Part shown: in pieces, positions 27,425 through 37,800 of the stretch
Position numbering within the stretch: position 1 is the stretch's first letter
Layout of the letters: each line of letters starts with the position of its first letter
Source: Actinomadura graeca
Lineage (GTDB): Bacteria > Actinomycetota > Actinomycetes > Streptosporangiales > Streptosporangiaceae
Direction: 5' to 3'
NCBI RefSeq assembly: GCF_019175365.1
Contig: NZ_CP059572.1
Coordinates: 2,542,001-2,606,000 of the forward strand
Length of the DNA: 64,000 nucleotides
Made by a program: the position numbers and the translations under genes
Notes under the pieces: model-generated
Database searches by the model: none
What the model was told of the DNA's origin: nothing
The model's input: the letters and a program-made list of their open reading frames with translations, nothing else

Positions 27425-28234
27425 TCAGGCGACGACGTTGTCGGGGACGTCGAGCCAGATCCGCTGTTCCCGGTCGGTGACGGTGATCCCGTAGCGGGTG
27501 CAGGCGGGTTCCCCGGCCTGACGCCATCGTCGCTCGGTGTCGTGGATGACCGATTGCGGGAGGCGCTGGCCGCGCAGCGGCATGAACGACGCGGGACCGA
27601 GGAACCGCCCGGCCGCCGTGCCGTCCGGCCGGACGGTCAGGCGGCAGAGCGGCCAGTCGGGGTGGAAGGTCGGCGCCCAGGGCACGACGATCACGCCGCC
27701 GGGCCTGGTCTGCCGGATCCAGGCGGCCGGGATCCGGTGGGCGGCGGCGGTCACGATGATCCGGTCATAGGGCGCCCCAGGCGCGTATCCGCCGACCCCG
27801 TCGGCGATCACCAGGTTCACCGGATATCCGGCCCTGCCGAGCGCCGCGCGGGCATGGGCCGCGATCTCCGGGGCGATCTCGACCGTGGTGACGTTGCCGG
27901 CTCCGACGACGGTCGCCAGCACGGCCGCGTTGTACCCGGTTCCGGTGCCGATCTCCAGGACGCGCAGGCCGGGCCGGACGTCGAGCGCGTCGATCATGTC
28001 GGCCATGATCTCCGGGGAACTGCCGGACGAGGTCGGCCATATCCCCTTGTCGGCCACCCCGTCGTCCACTTGTGTGATCACCGGTTGCTCGTCATCGCAG
28101 ACAAGCCGCGTCCATTCCTCTGGGTGCTCTTGGCGGGTGATGGGGACCGCCCAGCCGTCGTCTTGGCGAATCCAGAGGGTATCGGGGACGAACGCCTCGC
28201 GGGGTACGGCGCGGCGGATGTCCTCTGGGGTCAT
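27425..28234 (-). CDS. RiPP-type protein L-isoaspartyl O-methyltransferase homologue
   Basis: A 269-residue SAM methyltransferase of the PIMT family: MTPEDIRRAVPREAFVP at the start, the SSGSSPEIMADMIDAL substrate loop, motif I VLEIGTGTGYNAAVLA, VTTVEIAPEIAAHARAAL and YDRIIVTAAAHRIPAAWI, GGVIVVPW. Standard PIMTs end near residue 210-220; this one has an extra C-terminal domain with RYGITVTDREQRIWLD, which I associate with PIMT homologues of lanthipeptide, lasso, graspetide and imiditide clusters, where they methylate an Asp of a precursor to give an aspartimide. The ATG overlaps the TGA of a 41-residue peptide gene (ATGA), so the peptide is the probable substrate. Confidence 0.85.
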   Translation of the reverse strand: MTPEDIRRAVPREAFVPDTLWIRQDDGWAVPITRQEHPEEWTRLVCDDEQPVITQVDDGVADKGIWPTSSGSSPEIMADMIDALDVRPGLRVLEIGTGTGYNAAVLATVVGAGNVTTVEIAPEIAAHARAALGRAGYPVNLVIADGVGGYAPGAPYDRIIVTAAAHRIPAAWIRQTRPGGVIVVPWAPTFHPDWPLCRLTVRPDGTAAGRFLGPASFMPLRGQRLPQSVIHDTERRWRQAGEPACTRYGITVTDREQRIWLDVPDNVVA

Positions 28235-28356
28235 CCCTGTTCCCCGCACCCGACACACACGACCTCTTGCTTCTTCCCTTTTCCGTTACCGCCGGTCTGA
28301 ATTTTACCAGTTCCATTACACATGCCACAAACAACTTTTTTGCCGTGCTTGCCCAT
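28231..28356 (-). CDS. 41-residue double-CxxC peptide, candidate substrate of the PIMT
   Basis: A small basic, Gly/Lys-rich protein with two CxxC pairs (Cys10/Cys13 and Cys34/Cys37) in similar settings (VVCGMCNGTG and VVCVGCGEQG), like CxxCxGxG zinc-ribbon motifs. There is no Asp; it has two Asn-Gly steps (14-15, 24-25), sequences that readily form succinimide/isoAsp, the classic PIMT substrate. The ATG at 28356 has a GGAAGG leader 10 bp upstream; a longer frame to 28482 has no RBS. The stop overlaps the methyltransferase ATG. About half of its codons end in A or T, quite unlike the neighbours. It could be a RiPP precursor or a zinc-ribbon protein repaired or modified by the enzyme. Confidence 0.7.
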   Translation of the reverse strand: MGKHGKKVVCGMCNGTGKIQTGGNGKGKKQEVVCVGCGEQG

Positions 28357-31870: not shown

Positions 31871-34800
31871 TCAGGTTTGGGACTCCAGCCATGTGGCTAT
31901 TGCGGGCCAGGTTTGCCGCAGCATCTCCGGCTGCACGATGTCCCTGTGCCGGCAGGGGAGCCTGACCTCGGTGACCTCTCCGCGCACGAAGGGCTCCCAG
32001 AGGCCGCCGTCCGGGGGGTTCCCGCCTCCGCCGCGCACGTCGGCGATGAAGAGCAGGATGTCCCCGTCGAAGACGCCCGGCCGATGGGTCCTCTTGATCT
32101 GCAGGTTGTTGTGGAAGATCTTCGCGCCGAGGAGCAGTTCCTCGTCGGAGATGCCGCCGAGTACCTCGCCGAGTTCCTCCCGGAACATCCCGGCGATGCG
32201 CCGCTGGTGGTCCTCCGTGGTCATCGCGCCGTGGTCGTGGACGTCGCCGTCCGCGTCCGGCGGCCCGGTTGCCCCGCCGGGCGGGGGCTGCCCGGAGGGG
32301 TCCTCGTCCCGCTTGACGGACGGGTAGGTGTCCAGGATGACCACCGCGGCGACGGTCTCCCCGGCGGCCTGGAGCTGCACTGCGATCTCGTGTGCGGGGA
32401 TCCCGCCGAACGAGAAGCCCAGCAGGTGGTAGGGGCCGGTCGGCTGCACGGCCCGGATCCGCTCGATGTACTCCGCCGCCATCTCCTCGATGCTCCCGGC
32501 CAGGTCGCCGCCGTCGAACCCGGCGGCCTGGATGCCGAGCAGCGGAACGTCGTCCGGGACGACCCTGGCCAGCGGCCTGTAGCACCAGCTCAGCCCGCCC
32601 GCCGGGTGGATGCAGAAGAACGGCGGCCGGGTCCCCTCGGCCCGGATCGGCAGCATCCTGCCGAGCGAGTCGCCCAGGGACGACAGGCCGAGCCTGCTGA
32701 CGATCCCCGACGGGGTCGGGGTGGCGAACACGTCGCGCACGGAGACCGTGACGCCCCTGTCCTTCAGCTTCTTCAGCAGCGTGACCGCCAGCAGTGAGTG
32801 CCCTCCGAGCCGGAAGAAGTCGTCGTCCACCCCGACCTCCGGTATCCCGAGGACCTCGGCGAACGTCTCGCAGACCATCTCCTCCAGGCCCGTTGCGGGG
32901 TTGCGTTCGGCTGCCGCGCCCGCGGCCCCGGCGTAGTCGGGGACGGGCAGTGCTCTGCGGTCGAGTTTGCCGTTGGCGGTGAGAGGGAGTTCGGCGAGCG
33001 GGACGAGCGCGGCGGGGATCATGTGGTCGGGCAGCCGCCGGGCGAGGAACTCCCGCAGGTCTCCGACGTCGATCGCCTCCAGTGTTTCGGGGACGAGGTA
33101 GGCGACCAGGCGTTTGTCACCCGGGGTGTCCTCGCGGGCGATGACCGCCGCCTGCGCGACGTCCGGGTGTGCCCGCAAGGCGGCCTCGATCTCGCCGGGT
33201 TCGATACGGAACCCGCGGATCTTCACCTGCTCGTCCGCGCGTCCGGCGAACACCAACCGGCCGTCCAGATTCCAGCGGGCCAGGTCACCGGTCCGGTACA
33301 TCCGCTCCCCCGGCGCGCCGAACGGGCACGCCACAAAGCGCTCGCCGGTCAACCCCGGACGGGCCACATAGCCGCGCGCCAGACCCGCACCGGCGACGTA
33401 GAGTTCCCCGATCACACCCGCCGGGACGGGAGCGAGGGCATCGTCCAGGACGAACAGCCGGGTGTTGGCGATCGGCGTGCCCACCGGGATGACACCGGAC
33501 GCCACGTCCTGCGCGGTGACCCGCGTCGTCGCCACCCCGATCGTGGTCTCGGTCGGACCGTAGTGATTGAACACACCCCGGTCACCGGCCGCCTCCACCA
33601 GCTCACCCATCCACTCGACCGGAGCGGCCTCGCCACCCAGAACGACAGAGGCTGCAGGCAGCATCCGCTCGATCCCCGCCGCAGCCGACAAGGCGACCAA
33701 ATGCGACGGGACCACCTTGAACGCGTCGATCCGCCGGTCCAGCAGGTGCTCCGCGACCGCCTCGGGGTCGGTGACCGCGTCCGCTTCGAGCACGTGCAGC
33801 CGCCCGCCGGTCACGAGGCTGGCGAACACCACCGTGTTGCCCAGGTCGGTCACCTGCGACTGCAACAGCGCATACCGCGCACCCACAGCCGTCCACCCGA
33901 GCCGGGACGACACCGACGACACATAGTTCGCCAGCGAACCTTGCGTCACCGCCACACCCTTCGGCGTCCCCGACGACCCAGACGTGTACATCACATACGC
34001 CAACCCCGATGAGGCGACCGCGCGCTCCGGCGCCGAGTCGGGCATTCCGGCCAGGAGGACGGCGGTCATCGGCTCGTCGACGGCCACCAGCCGGACCCGG
34101 TCGGCCTGGAGGCCGTCCGGTGCGTCCTGGGTGCAGAGCACCAGGTCGGCGCCGCTGTCGGCGAGCATGAACGCGATCCGGTCGGCGGGCAGCGCCTCGT
34201 CGATCGGCAGGTACGCCGCGCCCGCCTTCCACACGCCGAGGATCGCCGCCACCATCTGCGCACCACGCGGAAGGCACAGCCCCACGACCGACTCCGCGGC
34301 GGCCCCCAGGCCGCGCAGGTAGGCCGCCAGCCGGTTCACGCTCGTGTCGAGTTCGGCGTAGGTCATCTCGACGTCGCCGGCGACCAGCGCCACCGCGTCC
34401 GGGGCGGCCGCGACCCGTGCCTCGAAACCGTCCAGGACGGCCTCGGCCTCGGTGGCGGTCCCGGTGTCGTTCCACGCGAGGAGGACCTGGTCGCGTTCCT
34501 GCTGGTCCAGCACGTCGACCGCGTGCAGGACGAGGTCGGGCGCGGCGGTCACCGACTTCAGCACCCGCGCGAACCAGCCCGCGAACCGTCCGGCGGCGGG
34601 CGCGTCGAACAGGTCCGCCGCGACCGTCACCGATCCGTGCAGGCCCGCCGCGCGGCCGTCGGAGTCGAAGGTCTCCGCCAGGGTGAAGTCCAGGTCGAAT
34701 CTGGCGCCCGACGCTCCGCGCTCAAGCCGCGCCGCCGCGGCCTTCGCCTCGGGGAGGTCCAGTGTCGCGCGCTCCACGTTCTGGACGGCCAGCAGCACCT

Positions 34801-37800
34801 GGAACAGCGGGTGCCGCGCCATCGACCGGGACGGCGCCAGCTCCTCCACCAGCCGCTCGAACGGGACGTCCTGATGCGCCAGCGCGCCCAGGCTCATCTC
34901 ACGCACGCGGGCGACGACCTGCCGGAAGTCCGGGTCGCCGGACAGGTCCGTCCGGATCACCAGCGTGTTGATGAAGAAGCCGACCAGGTCGTCCAGGGCC
35001 TCGTCGGAGCGTCCGGCGACGCCCGATCCGATCGGGATGTCGGTTCCCGCGCCGAGGCGCGACAGCGTCACCGCGAGCGCGGCCTGCAACACCATGAACG
35101 TCGTCGCGCCCTCGGCCCGCGCCAGCGCCACCAGCCGCCCATGCACCTCGGCGGGCACACGCAACGGCGCGGCATACCCGACGTGGCCTGCGAGCGCCGG
35201 GCGGGGACGGTCGGTCGGCAGCGTCAGCTCCTCCGGCGCACCCGCCAGCGTCTGCCGCCAGTAGGCGAGCTGGGCCGACAGCAGGCTCTCGGGATCGGAT
35301 TCCTCGCCGAGCAGCTCGCGCTGCCACAGCGCATAGTCGGCGTACTGGACGGGCAACGGCTCCCACTCCGGAGCCCGGCCCTGGAGCCGCGCCGCATACG
35401 CCGTGGACAGATCGCGTCCCAGCGGAGCCATCGACGAACCGTCACTGGCGATGTGGTGCATCACGACCACGAGCGTCTGATCGTCCGCCCCCGTCTGGAA
35501 CAGCCACGCCCGGATCGGCACCTCGGCCGACAGGTCGAACGGACGGCGTTTCGCCTCCTCCACCGCGTCCGCGAGCCCCGCCAGGTCCACCTGGGACACC
35601 TGGAGGTCCCATTCCACATCCTCGGGGTCGAGGATCCGCTGGAAGGGCCTCCCGTCCACCGACGGGAAGACGGTGCGCAGCGACTCGTGGCGGCCGATCA
35701 CGTCGCGCAGCGCGGCGGTCAGCGCCTCGACGTCCACGCCCGAGAGCCGGATCGGCATCGGGATGTTGTAGGCGGGGTTCGGCCCCTGCAACTGGCTGAG
35801 GAACCACAGCCGCCACTGCGCGAACGACAGCGGCACCCGCTCCGGACGGGGCCGGGCCCGCAGCGCCGGACGTGCCCGGTCTCCTCCGTTCTCGGCCAGG
35901 TGCGCGGCCAGGCCCGCGACCGTCGGAAGCTCGAACAGCGTCCTGACCTCGACCTCGACACCGAGGACGGACCTGATGCGCGCCACCAGCCGCGCCGCGA
36001 GGAGCGAGTGGCCGCCGAGATCGAAGAAACCGTCGTCCACGCCCACCGACTCCAGCTTCAGCACGTCGGCGAACGCCGCGCAGAGGATCTCCTCCTGCGG
36101 CGTCGACGGGCCCCGGCCCGTCCCGGCGCCGGCGGTGTACTCGGGGGCGGGCAGGGCCTTGCGGTCGAGCTTGCCGCTGACCGTCAGCGGCAGCTCGTCC
36201 AGGGCCACCACGGCGGCGGGCACCATGTACTCGGGCAGGCGCTCACCTGCGAACTCCCTGAGCCCGGACGTGTCGACGTCGGCGGGGGTGACATAGGCGA
36301 CAAGCCGCCTGTCCCCCTGGGTGTCCTCCCGGGCGACCACCGCCGCCTGCGCGACGTCCGGGTGGGTCCGCAGGGCGATCTCGATCTCACCCGGCTCGAT
36401 GCGGAAGCCGCGGATCTTCACCTGGTCGTCGGCGCGCCCGGCGAACAGCAATCGGCCGTCCGGAGTCCATTTGGCCAGGTCACCGGTCCGGTACATACGC
36501 TCACCCGGCGACGCACCCCACGGGCACGCCACGAACCGCTCACCCGTCAGGGCAGGCCGCCCGACATAGCCACGGGCCACTCCTGCACCGGTTACGTACA
36601 GTTCGCCCACTACGCCGACGGGCACGGGGGTCAACGCCCCGTCCAGGACGAACACGCGCGTGTTGGCCATCGGCGTGCCGATCGTCGGGGCATCCCCGGC
36701 CACCAGTGGCGCCGACATCGACGCGCACACCGTCGTCTCCGTCGGCCCATAGGCGTTGATCAGACGACGGCCCGGCGCCCACACCTCCACCAGACCCGCG
36801 TCCAGGGCTTCACCCGCCGACACCAGCGTCTGCACAGACGTCAGATCGTCGGCTTCGAGAGCCGTGAGCACCGCCGGGGGCAGCGTCGCGTGCGTCACGC
36901 CCTGGCCCGTCACCACGTTCGCCAGTCCGGCACCCGGGATCAGCTCGTCCGCCGAGGCCATCACCAGGGTCACACCCGAGCACAGCGTGACCAGAACCTC
37001 GGACACCGCCGCGTCGAACCCCGCCGACGCGAACTGCAACACCCGCGAACCCGGCCCCACCTCGAAACGCTCGCCCTGCGCCGCGACCAGGTTCACCACG
37101 CCGCCATGCGGCACCGCCACCCCCTTGGGCGTACCGGTCGAACCCGACGTGTAGATGACGTAGGCCAGGCCCGCCGGATCCACCGCCACTCCTGGCGACG
37201 CATCCGGGTACGCGGCGATCTGCTCCTGCACCTGCGGGCCGTCCACCGCGACCGGGAGCACGCCTCGCAACGGCAGCTCGTCCAGGACGTCCCGGGTCCC
37301 CAGCACCACCAGCGTGCGGCTGTCGTCCAGCATGAACCCGACCCGCTCGGCAGGAAGCCGCTCATCGACCGGCAGATACGCCGCGCCCGCTTTCAGGACG
37401 CCCATGAGCGCCGCCACCAGATCCAGGCCGCGCGGCATGCACAGCCCCACGACCGACTCCGCGCCCACGCCGAGCCCACGCAGGTAACCGGCGAGCCGGT
37501 TCGCGCGAGCGTCCAGATCGGCGAAGGTCAGCTCGACGCCGTCGCCCACCACGGCCACCGCATCCGGAGCCTCCGCCACCCGCCGCTCGAACACGTCGAG
37601 GACGGTCGCGTCCGGCACGGCCGCCGCGGTGTCGTTCCAGCGGACGAGCACCTGGTCACGTTCCTGCCGGTCGAGCAGGTCCACCGCGTGCAGGGGGGTG
37701 CCGGGCGACGCGGTCACCACGTCCAGCACGCGGACGAACCAGCCCGCGAAGCGCGCGGCGGCCGGCGCGTCGAACAGGTCCGCCGCGACGGTCACCGATC

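What the first reader, a model, noticed from the sequence alone, without database searches (positions are those of the whole stretch)
27425..28356. Two-gene unit: double-CxxC peptide plus RiPP-type isoaspartyl methyltransferase
A 41-residue peptide with two CxxC pairs is translationally coupled (ATGA) to a PIMT homologue carrying the extra C-terminal domain seen in RiPP-associated PIMTs. Imiditide clusters are minimal pairs of precursor and PIMT, but there the modified residue is Asp. This peptide has no Asp at all; it has two Asn-Gly steps instead. Either the enzyme acts on isoAsp/succinimide arising from Asn-Gly in a zinc-ribbon peptide, or it modifies another protein. Both options would differ from the described imiditides.
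Basis: partly seen in the sequence, partly recalled or inferred. Interest (0 to 1): 0.75.

Follow-up and report, generated by a model that had tools for sequence, protein, structure and literature searches.

The report
Zinc-hairpin RiPP with Asn replacing Asp
A tiny zinc-hairpin peptide and its partner enzyme belong beside a recently described family of modified bacterial peptides, but the aspartate that the enzyme normally modifies has become an asparagine-glycine step, a site that can undergo the same chemistry on its own.

Summary
The two-gene unit is real: a 41-residue peptide (28231-28356, minus) overlaps by ATGA a 269-residue PIMT/PAMT homologue (27425-28234). It is a close relative of the cysimiditides (type II pamtides): a zinc-ribbon hairpin peptide plus a RiPP-type isoaspartyl methyltransferase. 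The swap is not noise. All four pairs of its enzyme clade (support 100/96) carry GGNG under purifying selection, in a family that otherwise keeps Asp: 88 of 93 PAMT-linked peptides have a loop Asp, and the 5 without it all have Asn-Gly. The clade enzymes share Ser73, where 57 of 70 Asp-type enzymes have Ala. In a sister arrangement (peptide plus zinc-ribbon protein, no PAMT of its own) 8 of 8 peptides have Asn-Gly. Best explanation: Asn-Gly replaces Asp as source of the hairpin aspartimide/isoAsp, forming it spontaneously; in the window clade the methyltransferase then works on the isoAsp/Asp produced. The chemistry is inferred; the main rival is that Asn-Gly is only a tight turn. New variant of a known kind.

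The parts
28231..28356 (-). Peptide gene, 41 aa, MGKH N-terminus, two CxxC pairs, zinc-ribbon hairpin with N24-G25 at the tip
   Evidence: aligned family; AlphaFold2 model pLDDT 72.9 with strands 18-22 and 29-33; weak fold matches to DnaJ and UvrA zinc domains, best E 2.4
27425..28234 (-). Short-form PIMT/PAMT homologue, 269 aa, WXXXGXP at 237-243
   Evidence: AlphaFold2 pLDDT 95.8; Foldseek best hits are PIMTs 1jg1, 2yxe, 3lbf, 1dl5
28231..28234 (-). ATGA overlap of peptide stop and methyltransferase start
   Evidence: the same -4 spacing, with the enzyme start extrapolated from the alignment, in 33 of 67 peptide-then-enzyme pairs
28282..28287 (-). Codons AAC GGA of Asn24-Gly25, in place of the conserved hairpin Asp-Gly
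   Evidence: position computed from start 28356
28016..28036 (-). Codons 67-73 (PTSSGSS) of the PIMT substrate loop; Ser73 is shared by the Asn clade
   Evidence: position computed from start 28234

Best explanation
A two-gene, cysimiditide-like RiPP unit whose modification site has changed from Asp to Asn-Gly. The peptide binds zinc through four Cys and folds as a hairpin with N24-G25 at the tip (inferred from family and model). Asn-Gly closes on its own to the aspartimide and opens to isoAsp/Asp (known chemistry of Asn-Gly). The partner methyltransferase, whose relatives methylate Asp and in several cases isoAsp, then methylates that isoAsp/Asp and drives it back to the aspartimide. The end product would be the class's own, reached from Asn without an enzyme-dependent first step. 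Shown: the pair, its conservation, the Asp-to-Asn column, selection, and the enzyme signature. Inferred: zinc binding, deamidation and methylation.
For: Aligned column: Asn falls on the otherwise nearly constant Asp. One relative with a long-form enzyme (L086) has GGGDG in closely similar flanks (KTGGGDG...QEVTCTGC). The clade of four pairs is supported 100/96 among Asp types. In the peptides dN is 0.12-0.17 against dS of 1.0 to saturation; Asn is AAC in all four while neighbouring Gly codons change silently. PAMT-linked peptides: 88 of 93 have a loop Asp, and the 5 without it all have Asn-Gly (repeated with the enzyme alone as query). Units with a zinc-ribbon protein instead: 8 of 8 have Asn-Gly, none has Asp at that site. 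Clade enzymes share Ser73 (Ala in 57 of 70 Asp-type enzymes) and an extra residue at 48; the 8 nearest database enzymes, 5 of them not already among my loci, all have Ser73. In print: an Asn two residues after the modified Asp of SsfA became isoAsp spontaneously (PMC10787088, read), and OlvSA, ThfM and AmdM act on isoAsp (PMC13001092).
Against: No biochemical data. Asn-Gly is also a favoured tight hairpin turn (recalled), which could explain the conservation without chemistry. A folded turn may deamidate slowly. The 93 and 8 units are not independent lineages: the four window-clade pairs are one event, and the 8 come from 6 genomes. Ser73 also occurs in 2 of 70 Asp-type enzymes, so it is not diagnostic. 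An orphan relative (L151) has neither partner yet keeps an NG, at a shifted place.
Confidence: 0.5

Rival explanations
1. Asn-Gly is kept only because it makes the tight hairpin turn. The window clade has lost the modification, and the enzyme persists as a zinc-hairpin binding partner or acts elsewhere.
For: Asn-Gly is a preferred type I' turn (recalled). Units without their own PAMT also carry it, 8 of 8. The site lies at the modelled tip.
Against: The clade enzymes keep the SAM and substrate-loop residues and the coupling. Asp-Gly serves at the tip in 62 of 92 PAMT-linked loops, yet stands at this site in 0 of the 8 other units.
Confidence: 0.25
2. The methyltransferase has gone back to a repair role: it keeps its partner's hairpin in the Asp form by undoing isoAsp that arises at Asn-Gly.
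For: Canonical PIMTs do this (PMC13001092). Asn-Gly is the classic damage site (recalled). Ser73 differs from most Asp-type enzymes.
Against: The enzyme keeps WXXXGXP and a shortened RiPP-type extension, scores higher against RiPP-system models (239 and 134 bits) than against canonical PIMT models (121 bits and less), and its nearest tree neighbours are peptide-paired enzymes (which held no canonical PIMT).
Confidence: 0.12
3. The enzyme methylates the conserved Glu31 of the QE step, or another carboxylate, instead.
For: Glu31 is the only acidic residue conserved in the four clade peptides, and QE follows the NG in all 7 rows of A2.
Against: QEV also occurs with Asp in L086. No Glu-modifying PAMT is described in the parts of the two papers that I read.
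Confidence: 0.08
4. The peptide is only a DnaJ-like zinc finger and the neighbouring PIMT is coincidental.
For: PF00684 matches 34 of 36 scanned family members at E up to 1.
Against: PAMT adjacency in 93 of the 105 peptides examined; negative extrapolated spacing in 59 of 66 peptide-then-enzyme pairs; different flanking genes in five loci, judged by eye from predicted ORFs.
Confidence: 0.03

Closest known systems
Cysimiditides / type II pamtides (FcaA-FcaM, TceA, NalA)
   Same: Two genes; tetracysteine zinc-ribbon peptide; RiPP-type PIMT homologue; modification site at the hairpin centre
   Different: Asn-Gly instead of the class-defining Asp; second CxxCxGxG motif truncated in the window; enzyme of 269 aa, below the 300-aa cut used in the PAMT mining of PMC10787088
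Imiditides / type I pamtides (NmaA, SpaA)
   Same: Precursor plus PAMT pair; Actinomadura is one of their main hosts (PMC13001092); an MGKH start also occurs in type I-like peptides seen here
   Different: Those are Pro/Gly/Asp-rich linear peptides without the Cys motifs
Graspetide methyltransferases (TIGR04188; ThfM, AmdM, SsfM)
   Same: Closest named enzyme model; WXXXGXP
   Different: Below the model's cut-off; long C-terminal domain there; no ATP-grasp domain among 8 neighbouring window genes scanned with Pfam
Canonical PIMT / Pcm
   Same: Fold and SAM site; would act on isoAsp from Asn
   Different: Extra C-terminal segment and translational coupling to a peptide

Membership tests
Cysimiditide / type II pamtide | Two-gene unit of precursor and PIMT homologue | tested here: met
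Cysimiditide / type II pamtide | Two CxxCxGxG motifs | tested here: inconclusive
   First motif CGMCNGTG present; second is CVGCGEQG with both Cys but not the GxG spacing; three clade relatives have it in full
Cysimiditide / type II pamtide | Conserved Asp between the motifs | tested here: not met
   No Asp in the peptide; Asn24 at the aligned column
Cysimiditide / type II pamtide | Zinc binding, then aspartimide/isoAsp at the hairpin | not testable with these tools
   Hairpin model only
RiPP-associated PIMT (PAMT) | C-terminal extension with WXXXGXP | tested here: met
   WXXXGXP in the window enzyme and, at the aligned columns, in 51 of 59 short and 13 of 22 long enzymes; the extension is shortened
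RiPP-associated PIMT (PAMT) | Falls in the RiPP clade of a tree with canonical PIMTs | not tested
   The tree held peptide-linked enzymes only; model scores favour RiPP-system models
Imiditide / type I pamtide | Linear Pro/Gly/Asp-rich precursor with a conserved Asp | tested here: not met
Canonical repair PIMT | No C-terminal extension, not paired with a peptide | tested here: not met

The most novel reading that the evidence does not exclude
The zinc-hairpin peptide family has two interchangeable ways to place an aspartimide/isoAsp at the hairpin tip: Asp plus a dedicated methyltransferase, or a genetically encoded Asn-Gly that modifies itself. Units with a zinc-ribbon partner and no PAMT of their own use only the second. 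The window clade is the hybrid, in which the methyltransferase has shifted from activating Asp to acting on the isoAsp that Asn-Gly makes. It would be a RiPP class with a self-starting, timer-like modification.
Probability: 0.33. Interest if true: 0.75.

Novelty: new variant of a known kind. Interest (0 to 1): 0.58.

Why it matters
PAMT RiPPs are defined by enzymatic attack on one Asp. A conserved Asp-to-Asn-Gly swap that keeps the enzyme, and a sister system without its own PAMT that always uses Asn-Gly, would suggest that the aspartimide/isoAsp itself, not the way it is made, is what selection keeps. That bears on the open question of what this modification is for, and one peptide with a few point variants can test it.

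Tried and rejected
A protein search with the single peptide found nothing; an alignment of 24 relatives then found 51 proteins. The search for related loci in genome contigs gave 6 loci, of which 2 are short weak matches outside Actinomycetota. A shared neighbourhood was sought in five loci, by eye, and not found. The reading 'double-CxxC = generic zinc finger' was rejected because of the PAMT coupling.

Counts and what was dropped: 105 distinct peptides (104 matched by the stricter pattern, plus the window's, which that pattern misses and I added by hand). In one search, 4 were left out of the comparison: 1 with too little sequence around it (Asp) and 3 with neither partner (L246 Asp; L151 Asn-Gly at a shifted place; L228 neither residue). 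One search, before more flanks were fetched, had left out 9 and gave 83 of 88. L154 has a PAMT upstream, but that enzyme belongs to an Asp-type peptide and L154's own downstream partner is the zinc-ribbon protein, so it is counted with the zinc-ribbon group; otherwise PAMT-linked would be 6 of 94 without Asp, all Asn-Gly, and the other group 7 of 7. The idea that PAMT-linked Asn types arose many times was cut back: with the window clade counted once there are two such events (window clade, L131). The Fisher p-values (9.3e-6 and 1.2e-7) ignore kinship and are descriptive only. The zinc-ribbon partner pattern was written after seeing the first examples. 2 of the 8 zinc-ribbon-linked loops also hold an Asp elsewhere in the loop (L220, L221). 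4 Asp-bearing PAMT-linked loops also hold an NG (L023, L041, L043, L134). My scripts up to one search used a query file that held the peptide beside the enzyme; one search repeated the classification with the enzyme alone and gave the same table, with each linked enzyme at 244 aa or longer and 127 bits or more.

Paper searches: 'imiditide' (5 papers, 4 listed), 'aspartimide'+'methyltransferase'+'RiPP' (9), 'cysimiditide' (4), 'pamtide' (2), 'asparagine deamidation'+'RiPP'+'isoaspartate' (0), 'isoaspartyl methyltransferase'+'precursor peptide'+'Asn-Gly' (0), and a five-term either/or search (139, 15 listed). In the listings and passages that I saw no Asn-type cysimiditide is mentioned, but the primary cysimiditide paper (Zhu 2025) is not held and supplements could not be opened, so the variant may already be in its tables.

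Full report
WHAT IS THERE. On the minus strand, a 41-residue peptide (28356..28231) is followed, with an ATGA overlap, by a 269-residue protein (28234..27425). The protein is a PIMT homologue: Pfam PCMT 8.7e-34; best NCBIfam model TIGR04188, ATP-grasp peptide maturase system methyltransferase, 7.1e-71 but below its cut-off. Its model is confident (pLDDT 95.8) and matches solved PIMTs (1jg1, 2yxe, 3lbf, 1dl5). The 22 long-form relatives aligned have a median of 85 residues more after residue 229; the window enzyme keeps the WXXXGXP motif at 237-243. The peptide model is a two-stranded hairpin, strands 18-22 and 29-33, with N24-G25 in the tip; confidence is moderate (pLDDT 72.9) and fold matches to DnaJ and UvrA zinc domains are weak (best E 2.4). 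Of 36 family members scanned, 34 match the DnaJ CxxCxGxG model at E up to 1, the window peptide itself none.

THE FAMILY. The nearest named loci are Actinomadura craniellae (76%) and A. roseirufa (69%), and I take the genus to be Actinomadura (inference). In the genus, 34 of 65 genomes searched have an enzyme match at E <= 1e-60; in the family, 136 of 341 genomes have a peptide match at E <= 1e-4. The genome itself gives 20 enzyme match stretches, some of them pieces of one place, and 6 peptide matches. Overlap is the rule where the enzyme follows: with starts extrapolated from the alignment, spacing is negative in 59 of 66 such pairs; in 26 further units the enzyme precedes the peptide. Predicted flanking genes differ by eye in the window and four other loci. 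Window neighbours are a serine hydrolase of the beta-lactamase family, a two-component system, a MacB/FtsX-type permease and a DUF2975 protein, with no ATP-grasp domain among 8 scanned. So it looks like an autonomous two-gene unit.

WHAT IT IS. Two papers describe this kind. PMC10787088 (text parts 1-4 of 5 read) defines type II pamtides as CxxCxGxG_D_CxxCxGxG zinc-ribbon precursors with a PAMT; FcaM turns the hairpin Asp of FcaA to isoAsp, and in vitro only with zinc. PMC13001092 (text parts 1-3 of 5 read) calls them cysimiditides and stresses one conserved Asp. The mining in PMC10787088 removed enzymes shorter than 300 aa, which would exclude this short-form lineage. The primary cysimiditide paper is not held.

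THE ANOMALY. In an alignment of 24 family peptides the window's Asn24 stands on the Asp column. Of 105 distinct peptides (104 plus the window's, which the stricter pattern misses), 93 are PAMT-linked: 88 have an Asp in the loop; 5 do not, and all 5 have Asn-Gly (window, L058, L009, L010, L131). The first four belong to one enzyme clade supported 100/96 among Asp types in a tree of 76 rows. Their peptides are under purifying selection (dN 0.12-0.17, dS 1.0 to saturated); Gly22, Gly23 and Gly25 codons vary silently around a constant AAC. A further protein, P0014 from Actinomadura sp. 1N219, has the same type (TGTNGKG), its gene context unseen. L010 carries a tandem duplication that doubles the NG. 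L086, with a long-form enzyme, keeps Asp in closely similar flanks (GGGDG...QEV), which fits a direct Asp-to-Asn change.

THE ENZYME SIDE. Comparing the 4 clade enzymes with 70 Asp-type enzymes, five positions are constant in the clade and found in at most 12% outside (7, 48, 73, 75, 216). Position 73 lies in the loop that aligns with PIMT 'SAP' (1jg1; its contact with substrate is recalled): Ser in 4 of 4, Ala in 57 of 70, Ser in 2 of 70. The 8 nearest database enzymes, 3 of them genes already in the set, all have Ser73. Since the clade is one lineage this is suggestive only.

A SISTER WITHOUT ITS OWN PAMT. Eight peptides of the family, from 6 genomes, are followed by a ~100-residue zinc-ribbon protein (MTDRLxCPxCxGxGE...; DnaJ central-domain match 7.4e-8 in the best of 3 scanned) instead of a PAMT. 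All 8 have Asn-Gly at the hairpin and none has Asp there; 2 hold an Asp elsewhere in the loop. For 7 of the 8 no PAMT-like frame was found in the 6-10 kb read around them (L219, L220, L221, L224/L264 with two, L226, L257). In the eighth, L222, both kinds stand in tandem: Asp peptide, PAMT, Asn-Gly peptide, zinc-ribbon protein. One copy of the sister type is in this genome (L226), beside FtsK/SpoIIIE, GntR and integrase-like genes.

HOW IT MOST LIKELY WORKS. Asn-Gly closes spontaneously to the same aspartimide that PAMTs make from Asp (established chemistry; an Asn two residues from the PAMT site of SsfA was seen to do so). The PAMTs OlvSA, ThfM and AmdM act on isoAsp. So I propose that in the window clade the first step is chemical and the enzyme handles the isoAsp/Asp that results. 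This also gives a reason why the units without their own PAMT all have Asn-Gly. The strongest rival is structural: Asn-Gly is a favoured hairpin turn (recalled). Against it, Asp-Gly serves at the tip in 62 of 92 PAMT-linked loops, yet the eight other units never show Asp at the site; the sample is small and not independent.

VERDICT. By membership the unit fails one defining feature of cysimiditides (the Asp), so I file it as a new Asn-type variant beside them, not as a member. That it works like one, up to the source of the aspartimide, is the best-supported reading, at about even odds on the chemistry.

Noticed in passing
L226 (own genome C1:8536500-8542500), L219, L220, L221, L222, L224/L264, L257: Asn-Gly zinc-hairpin peptides followed by a ~100-aa MTDRL zinc-ribbon protein with no PAMT of their own; the L226 copy sits by FtsK/SpoIIIE, GntR-UTRA and integrase-like genes, as on an integrative element.
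   Followed up: partly
L004, L029, L031, L033, L034, L035, L037, L085, L087, L088: Long-form PAMTs preceded by Cys-free Pro/Lys-rich peptides; six of these ten begin MGKH or VGKH (L031, L033, L035, L037, L085, L088) like the zinc type, a start shared across type I-like and type II-like precursors.
   Followed up: no
L226:182-2728: An 849-aa open frame with phage-integrase matches on either side of a LacI-type helix-turn-helix match; an odd fusion or a prediction artefact.
   Followed up: no
window 28231-28356: The peptide gene has 51% G+C against 73% for the window; the A. craniellae relative uses G+C-rich codons.
   Followed up: no
L064, L081, L095, L097, L002: Decayed or missing peptides before open short-form PAMT frames (lost Cys, in-frame stops, lost first motif), so the units seem to turn over quickly.
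   Followed up: no
L023, L041, P0024, P0026: TDNG loops: Asn at or near the aligned column with an Asp just before it.
   Followed up: partly
P0033, P0038: Database peptides from unnamed sources with (A/G)NGxGKQE loops and no loop Asp, unlike the window clade elsewhere; gene context unknown.
   Followed up: no
P0006: A peptide closely like those of Actinomadura carries the source name 'Uncharacterised protein [Mycobacterium tuberculosis]'; probably a mislabelled or contaminated record.
   Followed up: no
window 31874-37000: Minus-strand nonribosomal peptide synthetase frame: condensation, two adenylation matches, two carrier domains and a thioesterase; it runs on beyond the stretch scanned.
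   Followed up: partly
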